From NCBI GenBank assembly GCA_019455325.1, contig JACFMQ010000008.1:1-64000 (forward strand): a stretch of DNA of 64,000 nt, in the 5' to 3' direction. The position numbers and the translations under genes were made by a program. The notes under the pieces were generated by a model. The model searched no databases and was not told the DNA's origin. It was given only the letters and a program-made list of their open reading frames with translations. The stretch is from Rhodocyclaceae bacterium. GTDB taxonomy: Bacteria > Pseudomonadota > Gammaproteobacteria > Burkholderiales > Rhodocyclaceae. Positions 23,721 through 47,558 of the stretch are shown piece by piece. The first letter of the stretch is position 1, and every line of letters begins with the position of its first letter.

Positions 23721-24689
23721 ATGAAATATCGGAAGCACGAAGCCAAGGAGTGGGCGCGCAAGAATCTGCCCGGCATCAACGGCGGCATCATCCAGCCGCT
23801 GAACAAGGATTACAGCATCGACTTCGAGGGGACCAAGGCCTGGATCAACCGCCAGATCGAGATGGGCGTCGATTCGATCACCTGCGACGGCGCCTGCGGC
23901 GAGTGGCTGACCTTCACCGTCGAGGAACGCAAGAAGATCTACGAAGTGGCGGCGGAGACGGTCGCCGGCCGCGTGCCGCTCTTGGCCAACACCAGCCACC
24001 CGAGCATCATGGCCGCCGTCGAGCTGGCCAAGCACGCCGAGGCGGTCGGCGCCGACGCGCTGATGCACGTCACGCCCTACTCGAATTCCTCCAGCAACGA
24101 AGGCGTGCTGCGCTACTTCGAGTATCTGGCGGAGCGGGTCGACATCGGCATCTGCCTGTACAACACGCGCCCCTCCGGCTACGTGCTGACGCCCGAGTTC
24201 ATCAAGGAGCTGGCCGAGAAGATCCCGAACATCTGCGGCATCAAGCAGGGCATGGGCAGCATCGACCAGACGCTCAAGGCCTACAAGCTCGCCGGCGACC
24301 TGATCGTCATCGGCGATCCGTTCGAGGACTACTGGCCCGAGCAGATGCGCTACATGCCGAAGACCGCGATGCAGTTCTGCAACTTCGTCGGCGCGCTCTT
24401 CCAGACCCCGGCCAAGCCGCGCGTGTCGCAGTACACCAAGCTGATCAAGGAAGGCAAGGTCGACGAGGGGATGAAGATCTACAACGAGCTGTCGCCGCTG
24501 CGCGTCCTCTTCCACGAGACGCAGGTCGCCTACCTGATGGGCAAGGGCGTGTTCCCGCTGGCCGGCCTCAAGTACTGGGCGGAGAAGCTGGGGCTGCCGG
24601 GCGGCCCGGTGCGTCCGCCGTTCGAGGTGCTGCCGGACTACGTGCGCGGGCAGATCGACGCCCGCCTGGCCGAAGCCGGCCTGATCTGA
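23721..24689 (+). CDS. DapA/NanA-superfamily Schiff-base lyase, substrate unknown
   Basis: A 322-residue TIM-barrel protein of the dihydrodipicolinate synthase/N-acetylneuraminate lyase superfamily. The Schiff-base lysine lies in CGIKQGMGS (K175) and the conserved tyrosine in CLYNTRPSGY (Y147). The threonine pair of true DHDPS (GTTGE) is replaced by GACGE (57-61), so lysine biosynthesis is unlikely. Other members of the family perform aldol cleavage, dehydration or hydration-cleavage of oxo acids. It heads an operon of acyl-CoA enzymes, so a C-C cleaving step in a catabolic pathway is inferred. Confidence 0.85.
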   Translation: MKYRKHEAKEWARKNLPGINGGIIQPLNKDYSIDFEGTKAWINRQIEMGVDSITCDGACGEWLTFTVEERKKIYEVAAETVAGRVPLLANTSHPSIMAAVELAKHAEAVGADALMHVTPYSNSSSNEGVLRYFEYLAERVDIGICLYNTRPSGYVLTPEFIKELAEKIPNICGIKQGMGSIDQTLKAYKLAGDLIVIGDPFEDYWPEQMRYMPKTAMQFCNFVGALFQTPAKPRVSQYTKLIKEGKVDEGMKIYNELSPLRVLFHETQVAYLMGKGVFPLAGLKYWAEKLGLPGGPVRPPFEVLPDYVRGQIDARLAEAGLI

Positions 24690-24736
24690 TCGCGATCGCG
24701 CGCCCTTGCGGGCGCGCACCAACCTGGGATGAGACC

Positions 24737-25933
24737 ATGATTGGATTCGAGCTGTCCGAAGAGCAGCGGCAACTGCAGGACGTCGCGCGGCGCTTCGCCG
24801 AGAACGAGATCAAGCCGATCGCCGCCGCCGTCGACCGCATCGCCGATCCCCGGCAGGCCTTTCCGCTCGAGGTGATCCGGAAGGGCTTCGAGCTGGGCTT
24901 CCACGCGCTGCTGATCCCCGAGGAATACGGCGGCATGGGCGGCAGCACGCTCGACTACGCCGTGCTGCTCGAAGAGCTGGCGGCCGGCGACATCGGCATG
25001 GCCAACGCCTTCCACGTCGTCATGTCGATGTCGGAAATGATCGCGCGCATGGGCACGCCGGAGCAGTGCGAGCGCTGGCTGACGCCGATCGCCGCCGACA
25101 CCACGGGAACGCACCTGATCTGCTTCGGCGCCACCGAGCCGTCCGGCGGCAGCGAGATCTTCTGCCCGCTGTCCGACCCGAAGCTCGGCACGCGCACCCG
25201 CGCGCGCCGCGACGGCGACCACTACGTGCTCAACGGCAGCAAGGTGTTCTCCAGCAACGCCAGCGTCTCCAATCTCTATGGGGTGCTCGCGCGCAGCGAC
25301 AGCAGCAAGGCCAACGCCGAATCCTGCTCGGTCTTCTTCTTCCCCGCCGACACGCCGGGTTTCTCGATCGGCACGATCGAAGACAAGATGGGGCACCGCG
25401 CGTCGATGAACGGCGAACTCATCTTCGAGGACATGCGCCTGCCCAGGGAGTACATGCTGGGCAAGGAAGGCGGCGGCTTCGAGACGATCAACGCCATCTA
25501 CGACACCAACGGCGTCGGCACCGGCACGATGGCCGTCGGCGTCGCCCGCGCCGCCTACGAGCAGGCCCTGCAGTACGCCAGGGAGCGGGAGATCTGGGGG
25601 CAGCCGATCGGCAAGTACCAGGCGGTCGGCCAGATGCTGGTCGACATGAAGGCGGACATCGAAATGGCGCGGCTGATGGTCCGGCGCATCGCCTGGCAGA
25701 GCGCCAACCGCAGCTCCGCCGAGGGCATGCTGCCGCCGAACATGGCCAAGGTCTATCCGGCCGAGATGGCGCGGCGCGTCACCATCAAGGCCATGCAGAT
25801 CTTCGGCGGCTCGGGCTACATGAAGGACTACCCGCTGGAAAAGTACGTGCGCGACGCCATGGTGCTGCCGATCATCAGCGGCGCCAACGAAGTGCTCAAG
25901 CATTTCATGTCGCAGCGGCTGCTGGACGCCTGA
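24737..25933 (+). CDS. Acyl-CoA dehydrogenase family protein with atypical catalytic position
   Basis: A 398-residue flavoprotein with the normal three-part fold. CFGATEPSGGSE (129-140) and AREREIWGQPIGKYQ (281-295) bind flavin and substrate, and GGSGYMKDYPLEKYVRD is the usual C-terminal region. Where medium-chain and glutaryl-CoA dehydrogenases have the base in YEGT, this protein has ISGA (S381). The alternative position used by isovaleryl-CoA dehydrogenase also shows no obvious glutamate (NAIYDTNGVG). It may use another residue (such as an aspartate) or catalyse a different reaction. Electrons would go to the EtfBA pair at 44 kb. It lies 47 bases after the DapA-like gene. Confidence 0.85.
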   Translation: MIGFELSEEQRQLQDVARRFAENEIKPIAAAVDRIADPRQAFPLEVIRKGFELGFHALLIPEEYGGMGGSTLDYAVLLEELAAGDIGMANAFHVVMSMSEMIARMGTPEQCERWLTPIAADTTGTHLICFGATEPSGGSEIFCPLSDPKLGTRTRARRDGDHYVLNGSKVFSSNASVSNLYGVLARSDSSKANAESCSVFFFPADTPGFSIGTIEDKMGHRASMNGELIFEDMRLPREYMLGKEGGGFETINAIYDTNGVGTGTMAVGVARAAYEQALQYAREREIWGQPIGKYQAVGQMLVDMKADIEMARLMVRRIAWQSANRSSAEGMLPPNMAKVYPAEMARRVTIKAMQIFGGSGYMKDYPLEKYVRDAMVLPIISGANEVLKHFMSQRLLDA

Positions 25934-25961
25934 CCCCCTGCGAACGAACGAGGATTTCCCC

Positions 25962-27284
25962 ATGAGTCTGGACAGTCTGTTCAAACCGAAGTCGGTCGCC
26001 GTCTATGGCGCGTCGGCCGCCGACAGCCGCAAGCTCGGCAACACCCTGCTGAAGAACGCCGCCAGCGGCGCCGGCGACGTGCTCGCCGTGCATCCCGAGG
26101 CGGACGTCATCGACGGCATTCCCGCCGTCGCCAAACTCCACCGGCCGGTCGACCTGGCGCTGATCTCGGTGCCCGACAGGCGCGTCGAGGCGGCCGTCGT
26201 CGACGCCGCCGCCGCCGGCTGCGGCGCCGCCATCGTGCTTTCCTCCGGCTTCGGCGAAACCGGCGCCGAGGGGCGCGCGGTGCAGGATCGCCTGGTGGCC
26301 ATCGCCCGCGCCGCCGGCATGCGGCTGATCGGGCCGAACTGCATGGGCGTGGTCAGCCACCTCGGCAGCGGGCGCTGGCTCAACGGCTCCTACTTCTGGC
26401 GCATCCCGACGACGCCGGGCGGGCTTTCCTTCGTCAGCCAGTCCGGCGCCTTCGGCGGCATGTTCTTCGGCCACATGCGCAGCGGCGGCCTCGGCCTGTC
26501 GCGCTTCCTGAGCGTCGGCAACTCGGCCGACGTCGGCATCACCGATGCGCTCGAATGGCTCGGCGACGATCCGCAGACAACGGCGATCGGCATGTTCGTC
26601 GAGGGCTTCGGCGACGGCCGGCGCTTTGTCGAGGTGGCGCGCAAGGTCACTGCCAGGAAGCCGGTGGTCGTGCTCAAGGCCGGCAAGATGGCGGCCGGCG
26701 CCAAGGCCGCGGCCAGCCACACCGGCAGCATGGCCGGCAGCCACGCCGCGGTCCGCGCCGCGCTGCGCCGCGCCGGCGTGATCGAGGCCGCCGACACCGA
26801 AACCTTCTTCGACGCGATGGACGCGGCGGCGGTCGGGCTGCGCAAGAAGCCGGTGCGCAACATCGCCGTCGTCACCATCTCCGGCGGCCCGTCGGTGCTC
26901 GCCGCCGACGCCTCGGAGCGCGCCGGGCTCGCCCTGCCGTCGCTGAGCGCCGCCACCGTCGAGCGCCTGCGCGGCCTGGTGCCGTCGTTCGCCGCGCTCG
27001 GCAACCCGATCGACCTGACGCCGCAATGCCCGATCGACGGCTTCATCCCGGCGATCGAGGCGATCTACGCCGACCCGGCGGTCGATGGCGTCGTCGCCAT
27101 CAACTGCGGCCTCGACCTGAAACCCTTCGGCACCGGCGTCGCACGCGGCGTCGCCGCCACCGGCAAGCCGACCACCGCCTTCGTGCTCGACGCGCCGGGC
27201 GTCGAGGCCGAGATGGCGGGCGCCGGCGTGCTGCGCTTCGCGTCGCCGGAACGCGCCGTCAATGCACTGGCCTCGGGAGTCTGA
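25962..27284 (+). CDS. NDP-forming acyl-CoA synthetase, alpha-type subunit
   Basis: A 440-residue protein with a CoA-binding Rossmann domain (VAVYGASAADSRKLGNTLLK at 11-30) and two succinyl-CoA-synthetase-like domains. GPNCMGVVS and FVSQSGAFGG are typical. The phosphohistidine loop is AAASHTGSMAGSHAA. Such enzymes interconvert acyl-CoA + NDP + Pi with acid + CoA + NTP. In this catabolic setting, harvesting ATP from a product thioester is as likely as substrate activation. The ATP-grasp subunit follows one base after the stop. Confidence 0.85.
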   Translation: MSLDSLFKPKSVAVYGASAADSRKLGNTLLKNAASGAGDVLAVHPEADVIDGIPAVAKLHRPVDLALISVPDRRVEAAVVDAAAAGCGAAIVLSSGFGETGAEGRAVQDRLVAIARAAGMRLIGPNCMGVVSHLGSGRWLNGSYFWRIPTTPGGLSFVSQSGAFGGMFFGHMRSGGLGLSRFLSVGNSADVGITDALEWLGDDPQTTAIGMFVEGFGDGRRFVEVARKVTARKPVVVLKAGKMAAGAKAAASHTGSMAGSHAAVRAALRRAGVIEAADTETFFDAMDAAAVGLRKKPVRNIAVVTISGGPSVLAADASERAGLALPSLSAATVERLRGLVPSFAALGNPIDLTPQCPIDGFIPAIEAIYADPAVDGVVAINCGLDLKPFGTGVARGVAATGKPTTAFVLDAPGVEAEMAGAGVLRFASPERAVNALASGV

Positions 27285-27285
27285 A

Positions 27286-27952: not shown

Positions 27953-28819
27953 ATGCAGGAAATAAAGAGCTATCTGGCGCCCCGCAGCCTGGACGAGGCG
28001 GTGAAGGCGATGGCGGCGGGCGATGTCACCGTCTTCTGCGGCGGCACCGATCTGACGCCGCAGACCGATTCCGGCGCCAAACGGTACGGCGCCACGCTGA
28101 TGAACATTCGCCGCATCGAGGGATTGAGCGGCATCGCCGAAGCGGGCGACAGCATCCGCATCGGCGCCGCCACCACGGTCACCGAGGTCCGGCGCGATCC
28201 GCTGATCGCCAGGGCCGCGCCGATCCTGGCCGAGGCCGCCGAGCATTTCGCCAGCGACCAGATCCGCAACGCGGCCTCGCTCGGCGGCAACATCTGCAAC
28301 GCCTCGCCGGCCGGCGACATGATCAACCCGCTGCTGGTGCTCGACGCCGCCGTCGAGCTGGCGAGCTGGGCCGACGGCGCGCTGCGCACGCGCTCGGTGC
28401 CGCTGGAGAATTTCTTCACCGGCCCGCGCAGGCACGTCAAGCGGCCCGATGAACTGCTGACGGCGATCGTCTTCAGGAAGCCGGCAACGGATTTCGTCGG
28501 CTGGTTCCGCAAGTCGGGGCCGCGGCCGGCGCTGGAAATTTCGACGGTCTCGGTCGGCATCGGCGGCAATCTCAGCGACGGCGTCTTCCGCAACGTGCGC
28601 GTGGCCATGGGCTCGGTGGCGCCGACGCCGCTGCGCGCGCACGGCGTCGAGGCCGCGCTCGAAGGCCGGCCGCTCGACGCCGACAGCATCCGCGCGGCGG
28701 TCGCCGCCGCCGACGCCGACGCCACGCCGATCGACGACGTGCGCGCCAGCGCCTGGTACCGGAAGCATCTCGTCAAGGTATTCACCGAAGAGGTTCTGAA
28801 TCATGTCCTTGGAAACTGA
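27953..28819 (+). CDS. Mo hydroxylase 1, FAD-binding medium subunit
   Basis: A 288-residue FAD subunit of the xanthine dehydrogenase/CO dehydrogenase family. The FAD-binding motifs are VFCGGTDLTP (25-34, VxxGGT type) and RNAASLGGNICNASPAGDM near residues 104-122. There is no extra cysteine insert for a [4Fe-4S] cluster, so it is not a 4-hydroxybenzoyl-CoA reductase. It overlaps the 2Fe-2S gene by 17 bases. Order FAD, 2Fe-2S, Mo is common in catabolic Mo hydroxylases acting on N-heterocycles or CoA-bound aromatics. Confidence 0.92.
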   Translation: MQEIKSYLAPRSLDEAVKAMAAGDVTVFCGGTDLTPQTDSGAKRYGATLMNIRRIEGLSGIAEAGDSIRIGAATTVTEVRRDPLIARAAPILAEAAEHFASDQIRNAASLGGNICNASPAGDMINPLLVLDAAVELASWADGALRTRSVPLENFFTGPRRHVKRPDELLTAIVFRKPATDFVGWFRKSGPRPALEISTVSVGIGGNLSDGVFRNVRVAMGSVAPTPLRAHGVEAALEGRPLDADSIRAAVAAADADATPIDDVRASAWYRKHLVKVFTEEVLNHVLGN

Positions 28820-29285
28820 AATCAATTTCACGCTCAACGGCCGCCCCGTCACCGTGCGGGTGCCGGTCGCGATGAAGACCCTGACCATGCTGCGCGAGGT
28901 GCTCGGGCTGACCGGCACCAAGTACGCCTGCGGCGAGGGCGAGTGCGGCGCGTGCACGGTCAAGGTCGACGGCCGGACGCTCAACAGTTGCCTGATGCAC
29001 GCCGTCGATTGTGACGGCCGCGAGCTCGTCACCATCGAGGGCCTGAAGTCGCCGGCCGGCATGAACCCGACGCAGAAGGCCTTCGTCGATCACGGCGCCG
29101 TGCAGTGCGGCTTCTGCATGCCGGGCATGATCATCCAGGCCGACTACCTGACGGACGACGATCCGCAGCTCACGCGCGAACAGGCGCAGCGCGGCCTGGA
29201 GGGCAACCTCTGCCGCTGCACCGGCTACACCAAGGTGCTCGACGCGGTCGAGGCCGCGGTCGAGGCGAAGCGCTGCGGCCGCTGA
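28803..29285 (+). CDS. Mo hydroxylase 1, [2Fe-2S] small subunit
   Basis: A 160-residue protein with two [2Fe-2S] domains. The plant-type ferredoxin part has CGEGECGACTVKVDGR and a further cysteine in NSCLMHA. The helical part has QCGFCMPGMI and EGNLCRCTGYTKVLD. It passes electrons from the Mo site to FAD. Its start lies inside the FAD-subunit gene, so the two are translationally coupled, and the Mo subunit starts 39 bases downstream. Confidence 0.95.
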   Translation: MSLETEINFTLNGRPVTVRVPVAMKTLTMLREVLGLTGTKYACGEGECGACTVKVDGRTLNSCLMHAVDCDGRELVTIEGLKSPAGMNPTQKAFVDHGAVQCGFCMPGMIIQADYLTDDDPQLTREQAQRGLEGNLCRCTGYTKVLDAVEAAVEAKRCGR

Positions 29286-29324: not shown

Positions 29325-31649
29325 ATGGACCAGAAAGTCACCGCTCCAACCATCGAGAAGAAGACGCTGATCGGCCAGCGCGTCAAGAAACCCGACGCGC
29401 CGGACAAGGCGATCGGCAAGACCCGCTACATCAACGACATGGTCCTGCCGCAGATGCTGATCGGCAAGGTGCTGTTCGCCGGCCGCCCGCACGCGCGCAT
29501 CGTCAGCATCGACACCGCGGCCGCGGAACGCCTGCCCGGCGTGCATGCCGTGCTCACCGGCAAGGACGCCGCCGGCCTCAGGTTCGGCTTCGTCCGCGAC
29601 AACGCCGCGCTCAAGGACAAGGTGCGCTGCGAGCACGACGAGATCGCCGCCGTGGCCGCCGAGAGCGAGGAGATCGCCAGACAGGCGATCGGCCTGATCG
29701 AGGTGGTCTACGAGGATCTGCCCGGCGTGTTCACGCCCGAGGACGGCGCCCGGGAAGACGCGCCGCAGATCCACGACAACTTCCCCGGCAACAAGAGCCT
29801 GTACTTCGAATTCAGCCACGGCGAGGTCGCCGCGGCCGAGGCGGACTCCGACTTCGTCGTCGACAACGTGTTCCGGCCGCACCACGTCACGCACTGCTGC
29901 ATGGGCACCTCGTGCGCCATCGCCGACTTCGACCACAACGGCAAGCTGACGATCTGGACGCAGACCCAGTACCCGTACAACTACAAGATGGACCTGGCGC
30001 CGGCGCTCGGCCTGCAGCCCGGCGACATCCGCGTGATCCAGCCGCCGGTCGGCGGCGCCTTCGGCTCCAAGCTCGACGTCTATCCCTACGAGCCGATCGC
30101 CGCGCTGCTGGCGAAGAGGACCGGCCGGCCGGTGAAGGTGATCTATTCGCGCGAGGAGGAGTTCAAGGCCTCGCCGACGCGCCAGCCGGCGATCATCCAC
30201 ATGCGCACCGGCTGCACGCGCGACGGCACGCTGACCTTCCGCACCGCCGACGTGCTGCTCGACAACGGCGCCTACACCTCGTGGGGGCCGACCATCCCGG
30301 TGATCATGATGCGCACGGTGTCGGGCCACTACCGCGTGCCGGTGGTCGACTTCAAGGCGCAGGCGATCTACACCAACAACCCCTACGCCGGCTCCTTCCG
30401 CGGCTACGGCAACGTCCAGACGACCTGGGCCACGGCCCAGCAGATGGACATGCTGGCCGACATGGTGGACATGGAGCCGCTGGCCTTCCACCTGAAGAAC
30501 TCGCAGGTGTCCGGCGAGATCACGCCGCAGAAATCCTTCCTGCGCGAATGCGTGCTCGTCGAATGCCTGGAGACGGCCGCCGGCGCCAGCGACTACAGCC
30601 GCAAGCGCAAGGAATACGCGGCGGCGCGCGCCGAGCCGGGCCGCTACAAGAAGGGCATCGGCCTGGCCTCGTCGATCCACAACGCCGGCGGCGCCAAGAT
30701 CCACAAGTCGGACGGCATCGGCACCATCCTCAAGGTGGACGACTACGCCCGCGTCACGGTGATCACCGGCGCCTCGGAAATCGGCCAGGGCATCGACGCG
30801 GTGATCACGCTGATCGTCGCCGAGGAGCTCGGCGTGCCGCTCGAACACGTGCTCATCGTCAACAACGATTCCGACATCGCGCCGTGGGACGTCGGCGTGC
30901 ATGCCTCGCGCACCACCTTCATCGCCGGCAACGGCACGCGCCGCGCCGCGCGCAAGGCCAAGGCGCAGATCCTGGCGGCGGCCGAGAAGATGCTCGGCGA
31001 GCCGGCGGACACGCTCGAACTGCGCGGCGGCTCGGTGGTGCGCGACGCCTGCGGCACGCCGCTGATCAAGCTCGACCGCCTGCTGCGCCAGATGCACTTC
31101 CAGGCCGAGCCGGAGCTGGTGATGGTCACCGACTACTACGAGCCGAAGAGCGAGCCGGAGGGCGCCAAGCACGTCTCCGACCACTCCGCCGCCTATTCGC
31201 ACGCCGTGCACGTCGCCGAGATCACCGTCGACACGCTGACCGGCGAGATCACGGTGGACAAGATCACCATGGCGCAGGACGTCGGCCGCGTCATCAACCG
31301 CATGGGCCTCGAAGCCCAGATCGAGGGCGGGCTGGCCATCGGCCTCGGCTACGCGCTGAGCGAGAACATGCTGCTCGACCGGGGCCTGCTGAAGAATCCC
31401 TGCTTCCGCGACTACAAGCTGCTGACGGCGCCGGAGATGCCGCCGCTCGACCTGCACTTCATCGAGAGCGACTGCGCCGAGGGGCCGTACGGCGCCAAGG
31501 GCATCTCCGAGCTGCCGACCATCGTCATCGCCCCGGCCATCGCCAACGCGCTCTACAACGCGACCGGCGTGCGCGTCTTCGATCCGCCGATGTCGCCGGA
31601 GAAGGTGGCGCGGGCGATCGACGCGCAGCGGCAGGCGGCCGGCGGCTGA
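29325..31649 (+). CDS. Mo hydroxylase 1, molybdopterin large subunit
   Basis: A 774-residue catalytic subunit of the xanthine dehydrogenase family. QPPVGGAFGSKLD binds the cofactor, FRGYGNVQTTWATAQQMD is the conserved central loop, and the C-terminal GAKGISELPT provides the glutamate expected to act as base at the Mo site. Such enzymes hydroxylate carbon centres with water, or reduce aromatic CoA esters. The neighbouring CoA ligase suggests an acyl-CoA or a ring acid as substrate, but the sequence does not settle it. Confidence 0.93.
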   Translation: MDQKVTAPTIEKKTLIGQRVKKPDAPDKAIGKTRYINDMVLPQMLIGKVLFAGRPHARIVSIDTAAAERLPGVHAVLTGKDAAGLRFGFVRDNAALKDKVRCEHDEIAAVAAESEEIARQAIGLIEVVYEDLPGVFTPEDGAREDAPQIHDNFPGNKSLYFEFSHGEVAAAEADSDFVVDNVFRPHHVTHCCMGTSCAIADFDHNGKLTIWTQTQYPYNYKMDLAPALGLQPGDIRVIQPPVGGAFGSKLDVYPYEPIAALLAKRTGRPVKVIYSREEEFKASPTRQPAIIHMRTGCTRDGTLTFRTADVLLDNGAYTSWGPTIPVIMMRTVSGHYRVPVVDFKAQAIYTNNPYAGSFRGYGNVQTTWATAQQMDMLADMVDMEPLAFHLKNSQVSGEITPQKSFLRECVLVECLETAAGASDYSRKRKEYAAARAEPGRYKKGIGLASSIHNAGGAKIHKSDGIGTILKVDDYARVTVITGASEIGQGIDAVITLIVAEELGVPLEHVLIVNNDSDIAPWDVGVHASRTTFIAGNGTRRAARKAKAQILAAAEKMLGEPADTLELRGGSVVRDACGTPLIKLDRLLRQMHFQAEPELVMVTDYYEPKSEPEGAKHVSDHSAAYSHAVHVAEITVDTLTGEITVDKITMAQDVGRVINRMGLEAQIEGGLAIGLGYALSENMLLDRGLLKNPCFRDYKLLTAPEMPPLDLHFIESDCAEGPYGAKGISELPTIVIAPAIANALYNATGVRVFDPPMSPEKVARAIDAQRQAAGG

Positions 31650-37762: not shown

Positions 37763-37764
37763 CC

Positions 37765-38699: not shown

Positions 38700-38703
<4 letters not shown>
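37765..38703 (+). CDS. livM: ABC importer permease, LivM type
   Basis: A 312-residue permease, partner of LivH. FATSLNLLVGMGGMVSMGHA (about 42-61) is the family signature, followed by SLRTRGVYFIMITLAFAQM and a C-terminal GGLGSLWGGLAGAAAF loop that meets the ATPase. Its stop overlaps the next ATG by four bases. Confidence 0.93.
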
Positions 38704-39451
<748 letters not shown>

Positions 39452-39455
<4 letters not shown>

Positions 39456-40162
39456 GCGCCCTGCTTGAAGTCGAGAATCTGGAAACTTTCTACGGCGCCA
39501 GCCAGGCGCTGTTCGGCGTCGGGCTGCGCATCGCGCCGGGCGAGATGGTGACGCTGCTCGGCCGCAACGGCATGGGCAAGACGACGACCGTGCGCAGCAT
39601 CCTCGGCCTGGTGCGCGCGCGCGGCGGCACGGTGCGCTTCCGCGGCGAGGCGATCCACCAGCGCAGCGCCGACCACATCGGCCGCGCCGGCATCGGGCTG
39701 GTGCCCGAGGGGCGGCAGATCTTCCCCAACCTCACGGTGCGCGAGAACCTGGTGGCCTGGGCGTCGAACCGCAGCGGCACCGCCACGCCGTGGACGCTGG
39801 ACAAGGTGTTCGCCTTCTTTCCGCGCCTCGCCGAGCGCCAGAAGAACATGGGCAACCAGCTTTCCGGTGGCGAGCAGCAGATGCTGGCGATCGGCCGCGT
39901 GCTGATGACCAACCCGCACCTGGTGATCCTCGACGAAGCGACCGAGGGGCTGGCGCCGCTGATCCGCGAGGAGATCTGGTGCTGCCTGAGCAGGCTCAAG
40001 GCCGACGGCCTGGCGATCCTGACGATCGACAAGTACGTGCGCAAGCTGATCGCCATCGCCGATCGCCACTACATCCTCGAACGCGGCCGCATCCGCTGGG
40101 AAGGCAGTTCGGCGGAGCTTTCCGGCCAGCCGGAGCTGTGGCACCGCTATCTGGGGGTGTGA
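39452..40162 (+). CDS. livF: ABC importer ATPase, LivF type
   Basis: A 236-residue ATPase. Walker A is GRNGMGKTTTVRSIL, IGLVPEGRQIFPNLTVREN is the LivF Q-loop region, LSGGEQQMLAIGR the signature and LVILDEATEGLAP the Walker B part. The start codon is the TTG at 39452, overlapping the livG stop (TTGA), with GAGGAGG upstream. It ends the importer operon and is followed by repeat copy B. Confidence 0.93.
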
Positions 40163-40166
40163 CGCC

Positions 40167-40339
40167 GCGCCTGTGCCGTGGCAGACAAGCCGAATCGCAT
40201 CGCCGGTCAAGAGCCGGCGGCGCTTTGCTCATAAGCTGAGGGCATCGGTTTCCGGCGCTGGCGCCGGAAACCGCGAGGCGCCCGCGCTCGCGCGGCCGCC
40301 GACGACGAATTTTTTGTGACGAGCGATCGACGAATGACG
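40167..40339. repeat. Dispersed intergenic repeat, copy B
   Basis: It starts five bases after livF and runs into the start of the next gene. The core 40167-40281 is bounded by GCGCCT and AGGCGC in inverted orientation. An 11-bp perfect hairpin (GGTTTCCGGCG / CGCCGGAAACC) lies at 40247-40272. The 3' part (GACGACGAA ... GATCGACGAATGACGACGA) is nearly identical to copy C at 61338. Copy A at 19780 shares the 5' half. Confidence 0.8.
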
Positions 40340-41308
40340 ACGAGACCGATTAAACGAACCTGCGTGGCCGGCGCCGGCGCCATCGGCAGCCTCTTTGCCG
40401 GGCACCTGGCCAGCGTCGCCGAATCCACGGTGCTGACCCGGCGCACGGAGCACGCGGCCCGGCTCAACGAACGCGGCCTGCGGGTCAGCGGCAAGAGCGA
40501 GCGCCAGGCCAAGGTCCTGGCCTCGACCGATCCGGCCGAGCTCGGCGACGTGGATCTGGTGATCATCGCCACCAAGGCGAGCGCCGTCGAGGAGACGGCG
40601 CAGAGCCTCGCCGGCCACTTTCCGAACGCGCTGGTGATGACCGTGCAGAACGGCCTCGGCTGCGAGGCGGTGGTCGCCGAGTACGGCGACTGGCCGATCA
40701 TCTCCGCCGTCACCTTCATGAGCGGCAACCGCCATTCCGACGTGCACGTCGAGTACGAGCTCGACACCGCCACCTGGATGGGGCCGTGGGCCAGGCGCCC
40801 GGCCGACTACGCGCAGGTGCAGGCGGCGGCCGCGCTGATCGAGGCCGCCGGCCTGAAGGCGCAGCCCTTCCCCGACCTGCTGCCGGCGCAGTGGTCGAAG
40901 CTGATCTTCAACGCGGCGGTGAACAGCATCGCCGCCGTCTCCGGCCTGCCGCACGTCAAGGCTTTCGCCGCCTGCGATCAACTACAGGATCTCGGCCACG
41001 TCGTGCGCGCCATGATGGACGAGGGCAAGGCGGTCGCCGCCGCGCTCGGCATCGCGCTCTACGAAGACCCGTGGGAGATGAACGTCGAGGCCACCAGCCA
41101 CGGCAGCACCGGCAGCGAAGAGTACGCGCACGCGCCGTCGATGCTCGAAGACGTGCGCGCGCGCCGGCCGACCGAGATCGACTGGATCACCGGCGCCATC
41201 GTGCGCGCGGCGCGACAGGCCGGCGTGCCGGTGCCGGTCAGCGAAACCCTGTACCGGCTCGTCAAGGCGCGCGAGGCGAGCTGGCGGCTCGAACAACGAA
41301 ACCACTGA
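40334..41308 (+). CDS. Ketopantoate-reductase-family oxidoreductase 1
   Basis: A 324-residue member of the 2-dehydropantoate 2-reductase family. CVAGAGAIGSLFAGHLASVA (about 10-29) binds NADP(H). QWSKLIFNAAVNSIAAVSG carries the catalytic lysine, and APSMLEDVRARRPTEIDWI the substrate-binding part. With a second family member directly behind it in a catabolic island, reduction or oxidation of a pathway hydroxy/oxo acid is more likely than pantothenate synthesis. The ATG at 40334 lies in the end of repeat copy B; a GTG at 40316 would lie deeper in it. Confidence 0.85.
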   Translation: MTTRPIKRTCVAGAGAIGSLFAGHLASVAESTVLTRRTEHAARLNERGLRVSGKSERQAKVLASTDPAELGDVDLVIIATKASAVEETAQSLAGHFPNALVMTVQNGLGCEAVVAEYGDWPIISAVTFMSGNRHSDVHVEYELDTATWMGPWARRPADYAQVQAAAALIEAAGLKAQPFPDLLPAQWSKLIFNAAVNSIAAVSGLPHVKAFAACDQLQDLGHVVRAMMDEGKAVAAALGIALYEDPWEMNVEATSHGSTGSEEYAHAPSMLEDVRARRPTEIDWITGAIVRAARQAGVPVPVSETLYRLVKAREASWRLEQRNH

Positions 41309-41320
41309 ACGGGTGAAACC

Positions 41321-42235
41321 ATGAAAGTATGCATCATCGGCTGCGGCGCCATCGGCAGCCTCTTCGGCGCCCACCTGGCGAAGCTCGACGACGTCGAGGT
41401 CTGGGCCTACGACCCGAACGCCGCGCACGTCGACGCGATCAACAAGAACGGCCTGCGCCTGACCGGCCTCGCCGACATCGTGGCGCCGGTGCAGGCGCGC
41501 ACCGACGCCGCCCAGATTCCCGACTGCGACTTCGGCATCATCGCCGCCAAGACGCTGCACACCCGCGCGGCGATGGAAGCGACCGCGCGCATCTTCCGGA
41601 ACGGCGCGGTCTGCTCGGTGCAGAACGGCGTCGGCAACGAGGAGATCATCGCCGAGTACGTGCCGCGCGTGATCCTCGGCACGACCTTCCCGGCCGGCCA
41701 CATCACGGCGCCGGGCGTGGTCAACCAGGACACCGGCGGCAAGACCTGGATCGGGCCGTTCGCCCCGAAGCCGGCGCCGATGGTCGAGGTCGAGCGGCTG
41801 GCCGACGCGATGAACCGCAGCGGCATGACCTGCGTGCCGATGGCCGACGCCCGCGGCGCGCTGTGGACCAAGCTGATCTTCAACTCCGCCTCGAACGCCA
41901 TGGGCGCGCTGACCCGGCTGCCGCACGGCATCGCCTGCGAGCAGGTGTGGCCGGTGATGTTCGCGCTGGCGCAGGAGGGCATCGCCGTCGCCAAGGCGCT
42001 GGGCGTCACGCTCGACGGCGATCCGGTGGCGCTGCTCGAATACGGCAAGAAGGTCGCCTACCGGCACAAGCCGAGCATGCTGCAGGACGTGCTCGCCGAG
42101 CGCGCCACCGAGGTCGACGCGCTGAACGGCGGCATCGCCCGCATCGGCAAGGAAGTCGGCGTACCGACGCCGCTCAACGACGCCATGGCCGTGATGATCA
42201 AGGGCCTCGAACATTCCTGGACACTGAAGGACTGA
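41321..42235 (+). CDS. Ketopantoate-reductase-family oxidoreductase 2
   Basis: A 304-residue paralogue of the preceding gene. CIIGCGAIGSLFGAHLAKLD (3-22) is the dinucleotide fold, ALWTKLIFNSASNAMGALTR carries the catalytic lysine, and KPSMLQDVLAERATEVDALN is the C-terminal motif. The two differ clearly in sequence, so they probably act on different intermediates or form a heteromer. It lies 12 bases after paralogue 1 and seven bases before the M24 gene. Confidence 0.87.
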   Translation: MKVCIIGCGAIGSLFGAHLAKLDDVEVWAYDPNAAHVDAINKNGLRLTGLADIVAPVQARTDAAQIPDCDFGIIAAKTLHTRAAMEATARIFRNGAVCSVQNGVGNEEIIAEYVPRVILGTTFPAGHITAPGVVNQDTGGKTWIGPFAPKPAPMVEVERLADAMNRSGMTCVPMADARGALWTKLIFNSASNAMGALTRLPHGIACEQVWPVMFALAQEGIAVAKALGVTLDGDPVALLEYGKKVAYRHKPSMLQDVLAERATEVDALNGGIARIGKEVGVPTPLNDAMAVMIKGLEHSWTLKD

Positions 42236-42242
42236 GCGCATC

Positions 42243-43397
42243 ATGAACGAATACGTGAACAAGTACGCGCCGAGCAAGGCGGAGATCGAGCGCCGTTACG
42301 CCAACGTGCGCCGGGCGATGGAACAGGCCGGGCTGGACTACCTGATCGTCAGCGGCAGCGAATACACCGGCTTCGAGGGCGCGGTCCGCTACATGTGCGG
42401 CTTCCACATCCTGCACCGCTACGCCTACGTCGTCGTGCCGCTGGTCGGCGACCCGGTCGCCGTCTTCCCGCGCGAGGCCACCTGGGTCGGCGACCACAGC
42501 GCCACCTTCCTCGAACGGCGCGAGTTCCCGGCGCACTGCGGCGAGTGGATGGCCGACTACCTGAAGGGCAAGGGCGCGAAGAAGGTCGGCGTGTACGGCC
42601 TGGAATACGTGATCAACGTCCGCGACCACTCGGCGCTGGCCAAGACCGGCATCGAGCTGGTCGATTTCGACATCCCCTTCGACTACGCGCGCGCGCAGAA
42701 GAGCGAGGAGGAAATGGCCTCGGTGCGCCTCTCGATGGAGATCAACAAGGCCGGCGTCCTCGCCGTGCTCGGCGCCTACCGCGAGGGCGCGACCGAGGCC
42801 GAGCTGATGGGCGTCGCCGAGCATCTGTTCGCCGCCGCCGGCACCGCGCGCAAGACCATGGACATGATGTGCTCCGGCCCGGACGGCTCGATCCGGCCGC
42901 AGATGGTGTTCCCCACCGGCCGCAAGGTGCAGGCGAGCGACGCCATGGTCTACGGCCTGGAGATCGCCGGCGAGGGCGGCCATTGGGTCGAGTTCTCGCG
43001 CGTCCTGGCGCCGCGCGGCATCGACGCCGTCACCCGCGAGATGTTCACCGCCTACCAGGAGTTCCACGAACTGGCGAAGCAGCACATGAAGGCCGGCGCC
43101 ACCGCGGCCGAGGTCCATCACGCCTGCGTCAAGCCGTTCCAGGCGCGCGGCTACCGCCTCGGCCACGTTTCCGGCCACTCCATCGGCATGACCATGATCG
43201 AGATGCCGCGCATCGGCGAGGGCTACGACTTCGTGCTGCCGGAGAACATGGTCTGCTCGATGCATCCGCACATCATGACCGAGGATCGCCGGCATTCGCT
43301 GTACTTCCAGGAAACCTACCGCGTCGGCAAGACGGGCGGCGAGGCGCTGTCCGGCGTGCCGATCGAGGTTTACCACGGCGGCGAGACCGCCTTCTAG
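42243..43397 (+). CDS. M24-family 'pita-bread' hydrolase/lyase with altered metal site
   Basis: A 384-residue protein with a creatinase/prolidase N-terminal domain and an M24 domain. Family members include Xaa-Pro peptidases, creatinase, ectoine hydrolase and DMSP lyase DddP. The usual ligands D, D, H, E, E appear as E240, E250, H312, H341 and E357 (around GLEIAGEGGHWVEFSR, SGHSIGM, CSMHPHI and FQETYR). Both aspartates are thus glutamates and one glutamate is a histidine. Ordinary dimetal peptidase activity is doubtful; a C-N or C-S bond cleaving step of the pathway is a reasonable guess. It ends the KPR1-KPR2-M24 unit. Confidence 0.85.
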   Translation: MNEYVNKYAPSKAEIERRYANVRRAMEQAGLDYLIVSGSEYTGFEGAVRYMCGFHILHRYAYVVVPLVGDPVAVFPREATWVGDHSATFLERREFPAHCGEWMADYLKGKGAKKVGVYGLEYVINVRDHSALAKTGIELVDFDIPFDYARAQKSEEEMASVRLSMEINKAGVLAVLGAYREGATEAELMGVAEHLFAAAGTARKTMDMMCSGPDGSIRPQMVFPTGRKVQASDAMVYGLEIAGEGGHWVEFSRVLAPRGIDAVTREMFTAYQEFHELAKQHMKAGATAAEVHHACVKPFQARGYRLGHVSGHSIGMTMIEMPRIGEGYDFVLPENMVCSMHPHIMTEDRRHSLYFQETYRVGKTGGEALSGVPIEVYHGGETAF

Positions 43398-43711: not shown

Positions 43712-43754
43712 GCGGCCGCGCGCGCCGGCGCGGATTTGCTAGGGAGAAAAATTC

Positions 43755-44077: not shown

Positions 44078-44106
44078 GGCGGCCCGGAGCCGGCCGCCGC
44101 CTTTTT
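44077..44106 (+). terminator. Terminator-like hairpin just upstream of etfB
   Basis: AGGCGGC (44077-44083) pairs with GCCGCCT (44096-44102), with CCGG/CCGG inside, followed by five T residues. It begins at the last base of the preceding stop codon and ends only 24 bases before the etfB ATG. Confidence 0.65.
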
Positions 44107-44130
44107 CCGAACCCTATGAAGGATTGACCG

Positions 44131-44880
44131 ATGAAGATTCTCGTCCCCGTGAAACGCGTCGCGGACTACAACGTAAAGGTACGCGTGAAGAGCGACGGCA
44201 GCGGCGTGGACATCGCGAACGTGAAGATGTCGATGAACCCGTTCGACGAAATTGCCGTCGAAGAAGCGGTGCGGCTGAAGGAAGCGGGCGTGGCCACGGA
44301 AGTGGTGGCGGTGTCGGCGGGTGTCGCCGGCTGCCAGGAAACGCTGCGCACGGCGATGGCGATCGGCGCGGACCGGGGCATCCTGGTCGAGACGGATGCC
44401 GAACTGCAGCCGCTGGCCGTGGCCAAGCTGCTCAAGGCGCTGGTCGAGCGGGAGCAGCCGCAGGCGGTGATCCTCGGCAAGCAGGCGATCGACGACGACG
44501 CCAACCAGACCGGCCAGATGCTGGCGGCGCTGCTCGGCTGGCCGCAGGCCACGTTCGCCTCCAAGGTCGTGCTGGCCGACGGCCGGGCGACGGTGACGCG
44601 CGAGATCGACGGCGGCCTGGAAACGCTGTCGCTGCCCCTGCCGGCGGTGATCACCACCGACCTGCGGCTGAACGAACCGCGCTACGCGACGCTGCCGAAC
44701 ATCATGAAGGCAAAGAAAAAGCCGCTGGACACGGTAAAACCGGAAGACCTGGGCGTAGACGTCGCACCGCGGCTGAAGACGCTGAAAGTATCGGAGCCGG
44801 CGAAGCGGCAGGCCGGCGTGAAGGTGGCGGACGTCGCCGACCTGGTGGCGAAACTGAAGAACGAAGCGAAGGTGATCTGA
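44131..44880 (+). CDS. etfB: Electron transfer flavoprotein beta subunit
   Basis: EtfB binds AMP and pairs with EtfA to shuttle electrons from acyl-CoA dehydrogenases to the membrane. The 249-residue protein begins [20 protein letters not shown], has [18 protein letters not shown] and the [20 protein letters not shown] signature (about 110-130). It provides the electron outlet for the acyl-CoA dehydrogenases at 24.7 kb and 11.1 kb. etfA follows after two bases. Confidence 0.96.
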
Positions 44881-44882
44881 TC

Positions 44883-45815
44883 ATGGGCATACTCGTCATA
44901 GCCGAACACGACAACGACACCCTGAAGCCTGCGACGCTGAACGCCGTCACGGCGGCGGCCAAGCTCGGCGGCGACATCCACGTACTGGTGGCCGGCAGCG
45001 GCTGCGCGGGCGCGGCGGCCGCGGCGGCAAAGGTCGCCGGGGTGGCGAAGGTCAAGGTCGCGGACGCGGCGCACTACGCCGACCAGACGGCGGAGAACCT
45101 GGCGGCGCTGATCGTCGCCCACGTAGCCGGCTACAGCCACGTCGTCGCCCCGGCGACGACCGGCGGCAAGAACTTCATGCCGCGGGTGGCGGCGCTGCTG
45201 GACGTGGCGCAGATCTCGGACATCGTCGGCGTGGAGTCGGCGGACACGTTCGTCCGGCCGATCTACGCCGGCAACGTGCTGGCGACGGTGCAGTCGTCGG
45301 ACGCGGTAAAGGTGCTCACGGTGCGGACGACGGCCTTCGAGGCCGCGGGCGAGGGCGGTTCGGCCGCCGTCGAGTCGATCGCGGCGACGGCGGACGCCGG
45401 CAAGAGCCAACTGGTCGGCCGCGAACTGACGAAGTCGGCGCGTCCGGAACTGACGGCGGCGAAGATCATCGTCTCGGGCGGCCGCGGAGTGGGCAGCGGC
45501 GAGAACTACCAGGCGCTGCTCGAACCGCTGGCGGACAAGCTGGGGGCGGCGCTGGGCGCGTCGCGTGCGGCGGTGGACGCGGGGTTCGTGCCGAACGACT
45601 ACCAGGTGGGCCAGACGGGGAAGATCGTCGCGCCGCAGTTGTACATCGCGGTGGGGATCTCGGGGGCGATCCAGCATCTGGCGGGGATGAAGGACGCGAA
45701 GGTGATCGTGGCGATCAACAAGGACCCGGAGGCGCCGATCTTTCAGGTGGCGGACTATGGCCTGGTCGGCGATCTCTTCGAAATCGTGCCGCAGCTCACC
45801 GCGGCGCTTTCCTGA
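44883..45815 (+). CDS. etfA: Electron transfer flavoprotein alpha subunit
   Basis: A 310-residue FAD-binding partner of Etf[21 protein letters not shown] and the FAD signature [20 protein letters not shown] followed by [20 protein letters not shown] are all in place. It lies two bases after etfB and is followed by a paired-hairpin leader before the ETF:quinone oxidoreductase gene, so the three genes form one functional set. Confidence 0.96.
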
Positions 45816-45827
45816 CAATGTCTCCTC

Positions 45828-45858
45828 TACCGGTCGGGGCTGTCCTCCTGGACCGGTA
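45828..45858 (+). promoter_or_regulatory. First hairpin of a possible attenuator before etfQO
   Basis: TACCGGTC (45828-45835) pairs with GACCGGTA (45851-45858) around a 15-base loop. Its 3' arm can alternatively pair with the 5' arm of the downstream terminator (GGACCG with CGGTTC, one wobble), which would break the terminator. Confidence 0.4.
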
Positions 45859-45864
45859 ACTCGT

Positions 45865-45898
45865 CGGTTCGGGGCGAACGCCCCGAACCGATTTTTTT
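45865..45898 (+). terminator. Rho-independent terminator between etfA and etfQO
   Basis: CGGTTCGGGGCG and CGCCCCGAACCG (45865-45876 and 45879-45890) form a perfect stem, followed by A and seven T residues. This is the clearest intrinsic terminator in the window. It ends only 13 bases before the next start codon, leaving no room for a separate promoter. Confidence 0.88.
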
Positions 45899-45911
45899 GG
45901 ACTCGAATGTG

Positions 45912-47558
45912 ATGCAACGCGACGCGATGGAATTCGACGTGCTGGTGGTCGGCGGCGGCCCGGCCGGGCTGGCGTCGGCGATCCGGCTGAAGCAACTGGC
46001 GAACGAAGCCGGCTGCGAAGTGTCGGTCTGCCTGATCGAAAAAGGCTCCGAGATCGGCGCCCACATCCTCTCCGGCGCGGTCATGGACCCGCGCGCCATC
46101 GGCGAGCTGTTCCCGAACTGGAAGGAAGACGGCGCCCCGCTCAATGCGCCGGTCAGCGAAGACCGCTTCCTCGTCCTCTCCGAAACCGGCGCCCGCCAGG
46201 TGCCGAACCTGCTGCTGCCGGACTGTTTCCAGAACCACGGCAACTACGTCGTCTCGCTCGGCAACGTCTGCCGCTGGCTCGGCCAGCAGGCCGAGGCGCT
46301 CGGCGTCGAGGTCTATGCCGGCTTTGCCGGCGCCGAGGTGCTGTTCGACGAGAAGGGCGCCGTCAAGGGCGTCGCCACCGGCGACATGGGGCGGCTGAAG
46401 GACGGCAGCGAAGGCCCGGCCTTCCAGCCTGGCATGGAGCTGCACGCCAAGTACACCTTCTTCGCCGAGGGCTGCCGCGGCCACCTCGGCAAGCAGTTGC
46501 AGGCGCATTTCAAGCTCGACGCGGGCCGCGATCCGCAGGTCTACGGCATCGGCCTCAAGGAACTGTGGGAGATCGACCCGGCGCAGCACCAGGAAGGGCT
46601 GGTCATCCACACCGGCGGCTGGCCGCTCGAAGCCGACACCTACGGCGGCGGCTTCCTCTACCACCTGGAGAACCATCAGGTCAGCGTCGGCTACGTCGTC
46701 GGCCTCGGCTACGAGAATCCGTACCTCTCGCCCTACGAGGAGTTCCAGCGCTTCAAGACGCATCCGGCGATCCGCCGCTTCCTCGAAGGCGGCAAGCGCA
46801 TCGCCTACGGCGCGCGCGCCATCGCCGCCGGCGGGCTGCAGTCGCTGCCCCGGCTGACCTTCCCCGGCGGCGTGCTGGTCGGCGACGACGCCGGCTTTCT
46901 CAACGCCAGCCGGATCAAGGGCTCGCACTGCGCGATCAAGTCCGGTTCGCTGGCCGCCGAGGCGTGCTTCGCGGCGCTCGCGGCCGAACGGCAGCGCGAC
47001 GAGCTGGTCGCCTTCCCGGAGAAGTTCGAGGCGAGCTGGCTGCACGAGGAGCTGCATCGCGCGCGCAACTTCAAGCCGTGGATGGCCAAGGGGCTGCACC
47101 TCGGCGGGCTGATGTTCGGCATCGACCAGATGCTGTTCCGCGGCAAGGCGCCGTGGACGCTGCACCATGCGGGGCCGGACCACGCCAAGCTGAAGCCGGC
47201 GGCGCAGTATCGGCCGATCGACTACCCGAAGCCGGACGGGGTGGTCTCCTTCGACCGGCTGTCGTCGGTATTCCTGTCGAACACCAACCACGAGGAAGAC
47301 CAGCCCTGCCACCTGACGCTGAAGGACGCGTCGGTGCCGATTCGGGTGAACCTCGCCGAGTACGACGCGCCGGAGCAGCGCTACTGCCCGGCCGGGGTCT
47401 ATGAGATCGTGCGCGACGAATCGGGGCAGAACGCGCGCCTGCAGATCAACGCGCAGAACTGCGTGCACTGCAAGACCTGCGACATCAAGGACCCGACGCA
47501 GAACATCGTCTGGGTCGTGCCCCAGGGCGGCGAGGGGCCGAACTATCCGAACATGTGA
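45912..47558 (+). CDS. Electron transfer flavoprotein:ubiquinone oxidoreductase
   Basis: Takes electrons from reduced ETF and passes them to ubiquinone at the inner membrane. The 548-residue protein has the FAD-binding start DVLVVGGGPAGLASAIRLKQ, GSEIGAHILSGAVMDPRA and a C-terminal [4Fe-4S] domain with CPAGVYEI and NCVHCKTCDIKDPTQNI. The length is typical. The start is the ATG at 45912 or 45927; neither has a strong ribosome-binding site. It lies directly behind an intrinsic terminator, which hints at controlled read-through from etfBA. Confidence 0.95.
   Translation: MQRDAMEFDVLVVGGGPAGLASAIRLKQLANEAGCEVSVCLIEKGSEIGAHILSGAVMDPRAIGELFPNWKEDGAPLNAPVSEDRFLVLSETGARQVPNLLLPDCFQNHGNYVVSLGNVCRWLGQQAEALGVEVYAGFAGAEVLFDEKGAVKGVATGDMGRLKDGSEGPAFQPGMELHAKYTFFAEGCRGHLGKQLQAHFKLDAGRDPQVYGIGLKELWEIDPAQHQEGLVIHTGGWPLEADTYGGGFLYHLENHQVSVGYVVGLGYENPYLSPYEEFQRFKTHPAIRRFLEGGKRIAYGARAIAAGGLQSLPRLTFPGGVLVGDDAGFLNASRIKGSHCAIKSGSLAAEACFAALAAERQRDELVAFPEKFEASWLHEELHRARNFKPWMAKGLHLGGLMFGIDQMLFRGKAPWTLHHAGPDHAKLKPAAQYRPIDYPKPDGVVSFDRLSSVFLSNTNHEEDQPCHLTLKDASVPIRVNLAEYDAPEQRYCPAGVYEIVRDESGQNARLQINAQNCVHCKTCDIKDPTQNIVWVVPQGGEGPNYPNM

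What the first reader, a model, noticed from the sequence alone, without database searches (positions are those of the whole stretch)
23721..47558. Undescribed catabolic island for a CoA-activated organic acid
One strand carries a branched-chain-type ABC importer, AMP-forming CoA ligase, Mo hydroxylase, unusual acyl-CoA dehydrogenase, DapA-like lyase, two ketopantoate-reductase-like enzymes, an M24 hydrolase/lyase, NDP-forming acyl-CoA synthetase and ETF/ETF-QO. The combination matches no pathway I know. A logical reading is import, CoA activation, Mo-dependent hydroxylation, dehydrogenation to ETF, Schiff-base C-C cleavage, redox trimming and ATP recovery. An N-heterocyclic or branched acid is possible.
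Basis: inference. Interest (0 to 1): 0.78.

Follow-up and report, generated by a model that had tools for sequence, protein, structure and literature searches.

The report
Variant oxygen-free auxin-type breakdown operon
The stretch holds two separate gene sets side by side: most of it looks like an altered version of the known oxygen-free route that bacteria use to break down the plant hormone auxin, with the ring-opening half replaced by other enzymes, so it may be a new way to finish the job.

Summary
The genes are real and on one strand, but they are not one island. (1) dapA to livF (23.7-40.2 kb) is an operon-like set built from parts of the anaerobic indoleacetate (iaa) system. Its Mo hydroxylase is 87-89% identical to the one in iaa-type loci of relatives, its ABC importer is up to 84% identical to importers near two of those loci, and its MarR matches auxin-binding IadR regulators. 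The published next steps (IaaCE lactamase, B12 mutase, IaaF, IaaL) are not in it; the lactamase and a short mutase were not found in the whole genome either. In their place stand a DapA-like lyase, an acyl-CoA dehydrogenase without its catalytic Glu, and an ADP-forming acyl-CoA synthetase. The set recurs in two more genomes; a gammaproteobacterial MAG has only the dapA-dehydrogenase pair. (2) kpr1-kpr2-M24 belongs to an F420-linked cluster (M24 in 5 of 249 family genomes, all five with CofD). (3) ETF/ETF-QO is near neither set in the relative regions compared.

Most likely function: oxygenase-free breakdown of indoleacetate or a close indolic acid by a changed lower route. Substrate and later steps are inferred. 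Against this, all four genomes with the pair also carry the F420/M24 set, one without the iaa-type Mo enzyme.

The parts
23721..24689 (+). DapA-like (DHDPS family) lyase, 322 aa; Schiff-base Lys175 (GIKQG) and Tyr147 kept, 'GTTGE' motif reads GACGE
   Evidence: Pfam PF00701 E 3e-40; orthologs 93/87/80% in G114, G635, G636, 3 of 14 genomes searched; motifs; residue roles and the GTTGE comparison recalled
24737..25933 (+). acyl-CoA dehydrogenase, YEG motif replaced by ISG (no catalytic Glu), 398 aa
   Evidence: Pfam; alignment of 17 sequences; orthologs 93/88/76%
25962..27284 (+). ADP(NDP)-forming acyl-CoA synthetase alpha
   Evidence: TIGR02717 359 bits, below its cut-off of 567; conserved in G114 and L024
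27286..27912 (+). ADP(NDP)-forming acyl-CoA synthetase beta (ATP-grasp)
   Evidence: PF13549, matched on a longer reading of the same frame; conserved in G114 and L024
27953..28819 (+). Mo hydroxylase FAD subunit (moM)
   Evidence: PF00941, matched on a longer reading of the same frame; 69-72% to copies in six iaa-type loci
28803..29285 (+). Mo hydroxylase 2Fe-2S subunit (moS)
   Evidence: 76-80% to copies in six iaa-type loci
29325..31649 (+). Mo hydroxylase large subunit (moL), iaa type
   Evidence: 87-89% in 8 other family genomes of 249, one of them G114 with the same variant operon; tree does not separate it from iaa-locus copies, no branch there is starred
31673..33199 (+). AMP-forming CoA ligase, 46-50% to the ligase of eight iaa-type loci; own clade with G114 and L024
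33196..33447 (+). MoaD-type sulfur carrier of the Mo operon
   Evidence: TIGR01682 just above cut-off (68 of 66.15 bits); follows moL in six iaa-type loci
33547..34068 (+). MarR regulator of the IadR (auxin-binding) type
   Evidence: best PDB match 7KKI/7KFO, V. paradoxus MarR_73; contact residues
34065..35279 (+). NnrS-family membrane protein
   Evidence: PF05940
35612..36775 (+). ABC solute-binding protein, aromatic-acid-like
   Evidence: 84% to copies about 5 kb downstream of the iaa-type loci of G006 and G119, 2 of 10 regions; best PDB match 4evq
36842..40162 (+). ABC importer livH-livM-livG-livF
   Evidence: 71-81% in G006; same order after the operon in G114
40334..42235 (+). kpr1 and kpr2, ketopantoate-reductase family; part of the separate F420-linked set
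   Evidence: PF02558/PF08546; directly before M24 in G083, G116, G129, G114, G635 and G636
42243..43397 (+). M24-fold hydrolase with altered metal-ligand positions; part of the F420-linked set
   Evidence: PF00557; 5 of 249 family genomes, also G635 and G636; alignments
44131..47558 (+). ETF beta, ETF alpha, ETF-QO; probably general electron carriers
   Evidence: no match in 19 relative regions (9, 10); other copies in the own genome not searched

Best explanation
The stretch is composite. The 23.7-40.2 kb part is a rebuilt version of the anaerobic indoleacetate (iaa) operon. Shown by sequence: importer, CoA ligase, three-subunit Mo hydroxylase with its MoaD, and an IadR-type MarR. Inferred mechanism: the acid (indole-3-acetate or a close indolic acid) is imported and made into its CoA ester; the Mo enzyme adds water-derived oxygen at C2 of the indole to give 2-oxoindole-3-acetyl-CoA, the intermediate named for the iaa route. 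Ordinary iaa then opens the lactam with ATP (IaaCE), moves the CoA (IaaL), rearranges with a B12 mutase (IaaGH) and oxidises with loss of CO2 (IaaF). None of these is in the operon here, and a HyuB-type lactamase subunit and a short mutase were not found in the genome. Instead the Glu-less acyl-CoA dehydrogenase would oxidise the side chain-ring bond of the oxindole ester (its C3-H is acidic, so no strong base is needed) and pass electrons to ETF, and the DapA-like lyase would hydrate and cleave the C-C bond, giving an isatin- or oxindole-type product and a two-carbon unit. The ADP-forming synthetase would recover ATP from an acyl-CoA product. The order and chemistry of these last three steps are speculation. 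kpr1-kpr2-M24 is part of an adjoining F420-linked catabolic cluster of unknown substrate.
For: moL is 87-89% identical in 8 other family genomes of 249. Six of these were fetched, G114 (same variant operon) was held, G078 was not fetched; all six lie in iaa-type loci. Of the ten regions fetched (six close, four at 54-57%), eight show HyuA, HyuB, IaaF, B12 subunit, mutase and IaaL (in G095 HyuB and mutase as partial alignments); the other two are contig ends with mutase and IaaL. The dehydrogenase of those eight loci shows GGG, which PMC8360864 gives as the mark of IaaF, in 8 of 8. Importer genes 71-84% identical near 2 of the ten loci, G006 and G119. MarR: the four best of 21 PDB sequences are 7KKI, 7KFO, 7KRH (entries of the MarR_73 paper; 7KRH is probably a mutant) and 3CDH, whose protein is reported to bind indoleacetate; Tyr15, His32, Trp45, Arg46 kept, Ser28 is Thr here and Ser in G114 and L024. 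The own genome has no HyuB match at E<=1e-30 and, with a related mutase as query, only 736- and 1101-aa frames at 34% and 30%. Replacement set conserved in order in G114 and L024. 2-Oxoindoleacetate or its CoA ester as the lactamase substrate: passages of PMC5214803 and PMC8453981.
Against: G636 has dapA-acad but no iaa-type Mo enzyme (best 36%), so the pair need not act on an oxindole. All four genomes with the pair also have the kpr1-kpr2-M24 trio, which hints that the pair serves the F420-linked pathway. The ligase is only 46-50% identical to iaa-locus ligases and forms its own clade, so the acid may differ. The importer was near only 2 of 10 iaa-type loci. DapA-family enzymes usually form a Schiff base with a 2-oxo acid (recalled); an acetyl-CoA side chain offers none. 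Two of the seven MarR contact positions differ outright (Ala18 to Tyr, Val65 to Leu), and the two iaa-type loci listed gene by gene start with a GntR-like gene instead (by eye). IaaF and IaaL were not searched genome-wide. Nothing was assayed, and I had no sequence of the A. aromaticum Mo enzyme to compare.
Confidence: 0.55

Rival explanations
1. The operon handles another aryl or heteroaryl acid that arises in, or feeds, the neighbouring F420-linked pathway; the iaa-type Mo enzyme and importer were recruited for it.
For: dapA-acad occurs with kpr1-kpr2-M24 in 4 of 4 genomes, including G636, which lacks the iaa-type Mo enzyme. The ligase is a separate clade. In the window the operon sits between two parts of the F420-linked cluster.
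Against: moL is not separated from iaa-locus copies in the tree and the MarR keeps most auxin contacts. In G635 and G114 the operon is on a different contig from the trio.
Confidence: 0.27
2. One 24-kb pathway, with the ketopantoate-reductase-like enzymes and M24 acting on its intermediates.
For: Same strand, close spacing in the window (kpr1-kpr2-M24 gaps of 12 and 7 bases); co-occurrence of dapA-acad with the trio.
Against: The trio is elsewhere in G114, G635 and G636, and occurs without an orthologous dapA and without the iaa-type Mo enzyme in G083, G116 and G129.
Confidence: 0.08
3. A mosaic: Mo enzyme, ligase and importer only trim or clear an aromatic acid, while dapA-acad-acdAB does something unrelated and is merely co-transcribed.
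For: dapA-acad stands without the rest in L025.
Against: The nine-gene order is kept in three genomes, of at least two genera, at 57-93% identity to the window, more than chance neighbourhood would be expected to last.
Confidence: 0.1

Closest known systems
Anaerobic indoleacetate (iaa) operon of Aromatoleum (iaaABCDEFGHIJKLMPQR; passages of PMC9613470 and PMC8360864)
   Same: CoA ligase, Mo hydroxylase with MoaD (87-89% moL identity to copies in iaa-type loci of relatives), importer, oxygenase-free logic
   Different: no IaaCE lactamase, no B12 mutase, no IaaF (GGG motif) and no IaaL in the operon; has dapA, ISG-motif dehydrogenase, ADP-forming synthetase and a MarR, where the two iaa-type loci listed gene by gene start with a GntR-like gene (by eye)
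Aerobic iad loci of Variovorax/Bradyrhizobium (IAA to anthranilate through isatin; passages of PMC9613470 and PMC12633357)
   Same: IadR-type MarR; an AMP-forming CoA ligase (IadF); removal of the side chain as the proposed logic
   Different: no Rieske oxygenase IadDE and no IadG-type thiolase among the island genes; Mo hydroxylation instead of O2
IaaF benzylmalonyl-CoA dehydrogenase
   Same: acyl-CoA dehydrogenase fold with the catalytic Glu lost
   Different: ISG/IGG instead of GGG; 30-34% identity to the copies in eight loci; an eight-residue insertion after TEPSGGSE that three IaaF copies lack
DapA-family hydratase-aldolases and 4-hydroxy-2-oxoglutarate aldolase (recalled)
   Same: fold family, Schiff-base Lys and Tyr
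   Different: 322 aa against about 292 for several solved DapA chains, GACGE for GTTGE, orthologs in few genomes; substrate unknown

Membership tests
iaa (anaerobic indoleacetate) operon | iaa-type Mo hydroxylase moMSL plus MoaD | tested here: met
   moL 87-89%, moS 76-80%, moM 69-72%, MoaD 59-66% to copies in six iaa-type loci; that iaa operons carry this enzyme is seen in the relatives, not in a paper
iaa (anaerobic indoleacetate) operon | AMP-forming CoA ligase (IaaB type) | tested here: inconclusive
   46-50% identity to the ligase of eight such loci, separate clade
iaa (anaerobic indoleacetate) operon | IaaCE ATP-dependent lactamase | tested here: not met
   no HyuB match at E<=1e-30 in the own genome; no HyuA or HyuB in 104 kb of the contig
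iaa (anaerobic indoleacetate) operon | B12 mutase IaaGH and CoA-transferase IaaL | tested here: not met
   absent from 104 kb; own-genome search with the related G116 mutase finds only 736- and 1101-aa frames. IaaL was not searched genome-wide
iaa (anaerobic indoleacetate) operon | IaaF with GGG motif | tested here: not met
   window dehydrogenase has ISG and 30-34% identity; GGG in 8 of 8 relatives' loci. IaaF was not searched genome-wide
IadR auxin-binding MarR | IAA contact residues Tyr15, Ala18, Ser28, His32, Trp45, Arg46, Val65 (PMC9613470 passages) | tested here: inconclusive
   Y, Y, T, H, W, R, L in the window; Ser at 28 in G114 and L024: 4 of 7 identical here, 5 of 7 in the other two
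iad (aerobic) auxin locus | Rieske oxygenase IadDE | tested here: not met
   no such family among island genes; not searched genome-wide
Active acyl-CoA dehydrogenase (MCAD type) | catalytic Glu in YEG | tested here: not met
   ISG in 3 and IGG in 1 of 4 orthologs
M24 metallopeptidase | dinuclear metal ligands D-D-H-E-E | tested here: not met
   one pairwise alignment to prolidase 1pv9 puts G or E, E, H, H, and Q or E at these places; these stretches are unchanged in 5 of 5 sequences aligned; which prolidase residues are ligands is recalled

The most novel reading that the evidence does not exclude
A further, oxygenase-free auxin route in which the side chain is cut from the oxindole ring by a base-less acyl-CoA dehydrogenase and a DapA-like lyase, with no lactamase and no B12 mutase, ending in ATP recovery by an ADP-forming synthetase.
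Probability: 0.3. Interest if true: 0.78.

Novelty: new variant of a known kind. Interest (0 to 1): 0.55.

Why it matters
Auxin breakdown by microbes shapes plant-microbe relations, and the passages I saw describe three locus types (iac, iad, iaa; PMC9613470). If the reading holds, this is a further arrangement that needs neither oxygen nor B12 nor the ATP-dependent lactamase, with two enzymes whose active sites point to unusual chemistry (a dehydrogenase without its base, a DapA-type lyase on a CoA ester). It gives a short list of genes to assay. It also separates, out of the same window, a conserved F420-linked cluster of unknown substrate.

Tried and rejected
Furan/thiophene acid pathway, hydroxybenzoate reduction, steroid or terpene degradation, pantothenate and creatinine-type ideas for the KPR/M24 genes: considered from memory and dropped when the Mo enzyme matched iaa-type loci. 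4-Hydroxybenzoyl-CoA reductase: best NCBIfam model for moL (553 bits) but far under its cut-off of 994.55. Plasmid collection: 53 records with a DapA relative, 20 rows seen, 30-33% identity; the two contexts opened lie beside a 3-hydroxyanthranilate dioxygenase gene; M24 and kpr2 none; dehydrogenase and moL only distant, 10 of 50 and 12 of 67 rows seen. Viral contigs, searched with the DapA-like protein: none. Isatin hydrolase in the pathway: a PF04199 gene exists elsewhere in the own genome but G114 has none, so it does not track the operon. AlphaFold model of the DapA-like protein was poor (mean pLDDT 57) and was not used for a fold search. Order-wide DapA search found only the own genome among 399 sampled; G114, which has the gene, was evidently not in that sample, so it says little. 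Papers: searches aimed at this combination returned nothing relevant; searches on the iaa route gave the papers cited; on F420 with such clusters nothing relevant. All saw listings of open-licence PMC papers only; the primary iaa paper of 2012 is not held.


Full report
What is there. Between 23.7 and 47.6 kb the genes lie on the + strand in open frames: dapA-acad-acdA-acdB-moM-moS-moL-CoA ligase-moaD-marR-nnrS-sbp-livHMGF-kpr1-kpr2-m24-etfBA-etfqo.

It is more than one thing. The nine genes dapA to moaD stay together in G114 (93% to 69% identity to the window) and L024 (89% to 57%); G114 is in another genus, the genus of L024's genome relative to the window is not told. In G114 the same ABC importer follows at 80-88%, with a malate synthase gene in between. 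A MarR related to the window's points away upstream, directly in L024 and about 6.7 kb off in G114 with other genes between. L025, a gammaproteobacterial MAG (isolate MH-Pat-SR; a sponge source is my recollection, not in the record title), has only dapA-acad (80% and 76%). kpr1-kpr2-m24 is a tight trio of its own in G083, G116, G129, G114, G635 and G636. ETF and ETF-QO had no match in the nine regions (operon in 2, pair in 1, trio in 6) or in the ten iaa-type regions.

What the first set is. A family-wide search with moL (249 genomes) gave 34 genomes: the own one, 8 at 87-89% and 25 at 54-57%. Of the 8 I fetched six; G114 was already held and G078 was not fetched. Of the 25 I fetched four. All ten regions look like iaa loci: eight show HyuA, HyuB, dehydrogenase, B12 subunit, mutase and CoA transferase around moMSL (in G095 HyuB and mutase align only in part), two are contig ends with mutase and CoA transferase. 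In 8 of 8 the dehydrogenase reads GGG where other members read YEG, the mark of IaaF, a decarboxylating benzylmalonyl-CoA dehydrogenase (PMC8360864, first of six parts and passages). The lactamase substrate is described as 2-oxoindoleacetate or its CoA ester (passages of PMC8453981 and PMC5214803); that the Mo enzyme makes it is my inference from operon position. In a tree the window, G114 and L024 moL are not separated from the iaa-locus copies, though no branch there is starred. The importer of the window is 71-84% identical to one about 5 kb downstream of the iaa locus in G006, and 74-84% for the part seen in G119; the other eight regions show none that close.

The regulator agrees. The window MarR matches three chain sequences from the V. 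paradoxus MarR_73 work first (7KKI, 7KFO, 7KRH; E 1e-28 to 1e-27) and R. pomeroyi 3CDH next (1e-18), of 21 sequences matched. PMC9613470 (passages) reports MarR_73 and the 3CDH protein as binding indoleacetate. Of seven contacts, Tyr15, His32, Trp45 and Arg46 are kept; Ser28 is Thr here and Ser in G114 and L024; Ala18 and Val65 differ. The solute-binding protein is closest to 4evq, which I recall as R. palustris RPA0668, a benzoate-type binder (PMC3223731 passages on RPA0668).

What has been swapped. The own genome shows no HyuB-type subunit at E<=1e-30 (G017, G114 and G116 have one at 51% or more, L024's genome one at 37%, G083 none) and no short mutase (query the G116 mutase). IaaF and IaaL were looked for only in 104 kb of the contig. 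dapA orthologs at 80% or more occur in 3 of the 14 relatives searched (G114, G635, G636); the others show only 30-37% partial matches or, in G095, none. None of dapA, acdA or acdB matched in the ten iaa-type regions. The dehydrogenase clade reads ISG in three and IGG in one of four orthologs and carries an eight-residue insertion after TEPSGGSE; paralogs at 50-57% in G083, G116 and G129 read YDG.

Mechanism. Shown: gene content, homology, conservation. Inferred from known families: import, CoA activation, ring hydroxylation with water. Speculative: dehydrogenation of the oxindole ester without a base, hydration and C-C cleavage by the DapA-like lyase, ATP recovery. A two-carbon product could leave as acetyl-CoA (with isatin) or as a glyoxylate unit (with oxindole); the malate synthase in G114 would fit the second, weakly.

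Against it. G636, the genome of L025, has dapA-acad and the trio (64-71%) with F420 synthesis genes and the LLM enzyme, but no iaa-type Mo enzyme (best 36%). So the pair may belong to the F420-linked pathway, or to a step shared by both. The ligase clade is distinct.

The second set. M24 is in 5 of 249 family genomes, the same five that held a dehydrogenase match of 50% or more among 150 searched (the further genomes were not searched for it). If independent, the chance of the same five is about 2e-9, but genomes and clusters are related, so this overstates it. CofD is over cut-off in 21 of 249, including all five (3e-6 under the same caveat). Within the stretches fetched, the trio shares a region with FO synthase, the LLM enzyme and FAH in G129, G116, G635 and G636; in G083 only the MMPL-DUF1329-Mo part is near and CofD lies elsewhere. 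In the window CofC, CofE, an F420 reductase and FdhD reach their cut-offs, and CofD does too. The iaa-like operon sits between two parts of this cluster.

Verdict. Composite locus; the main part is a new variant of the anaerobic auxin operon, not an unknown kind. I know of no assay of it, so the substrate stays inferred.

Noticed in passing
window 140-2639 (-), 5625-13148, 13349-19725, 40334-43397, 50439-61327; own contig C27 (L201, L202): F420-linked catabolic supercluster of unknown substrate: CofC/CofD/CofE, F420 reductase, FO synthase, LLM enzyme, FAH, M20, PF04199 hydrolase, DMSO-reductase-family enzyme with FdhD, two MMPL-DUF1302-DUF1329 sets, second Mo hydroxylase, kpr1-kpr2-M24. Large parts lie together in G129, G116 and G635, a smaller set in G636, the trio with MMPL-DUF1329-Mo in G083 (some names by eye).
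   Followed up: partly
window 42243-43397: M24 protein with most of the usual metal-ligand positions altered and these stretches unchanged in five sequences from four genera; perhaps a non-metal hydrolase or lyase like creatinase.
   Followed up: partly
G114 contig C134 28.6-42.7 kb (L112, L104); G116 C1 728-741 kb (L110): A second HyuAB-mutase cluster, about 51% identical to the iaa lactamase, with CoA ligases, an OYE-type reductase and a large acyl-CoA dehydrogenase (last two by eye): possibly an iaa-like route for another lactam-forming acid.
   Followed up: partly
L122 12001-12972 and L123 12001-12954 (plasmids of Chelatococcus and Ruegeria): Distant DapA-like relatives of about the same length beside a 3-hydroxyanthranilate 3,4-dioxygenase gene, an aspartate dehydrogenase gene and transporters; on the Chelatococcus plasmid also a Mo hydroxylase and a branched-chain-type ABC importer.
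   Followed up: partly
window 21376-23383: Arsenic set (ArsR, ArsC, Acr3-like transporter) directly upstream of dapA, named by eye from the translations.
   Followed up: no
L105 79-1674 (G114): Malate synthase A gene inside the G114 version of the locus, between moaD and the importer; a hint at acetyl-CoA or glyoxylate as product.
   Followed up: no
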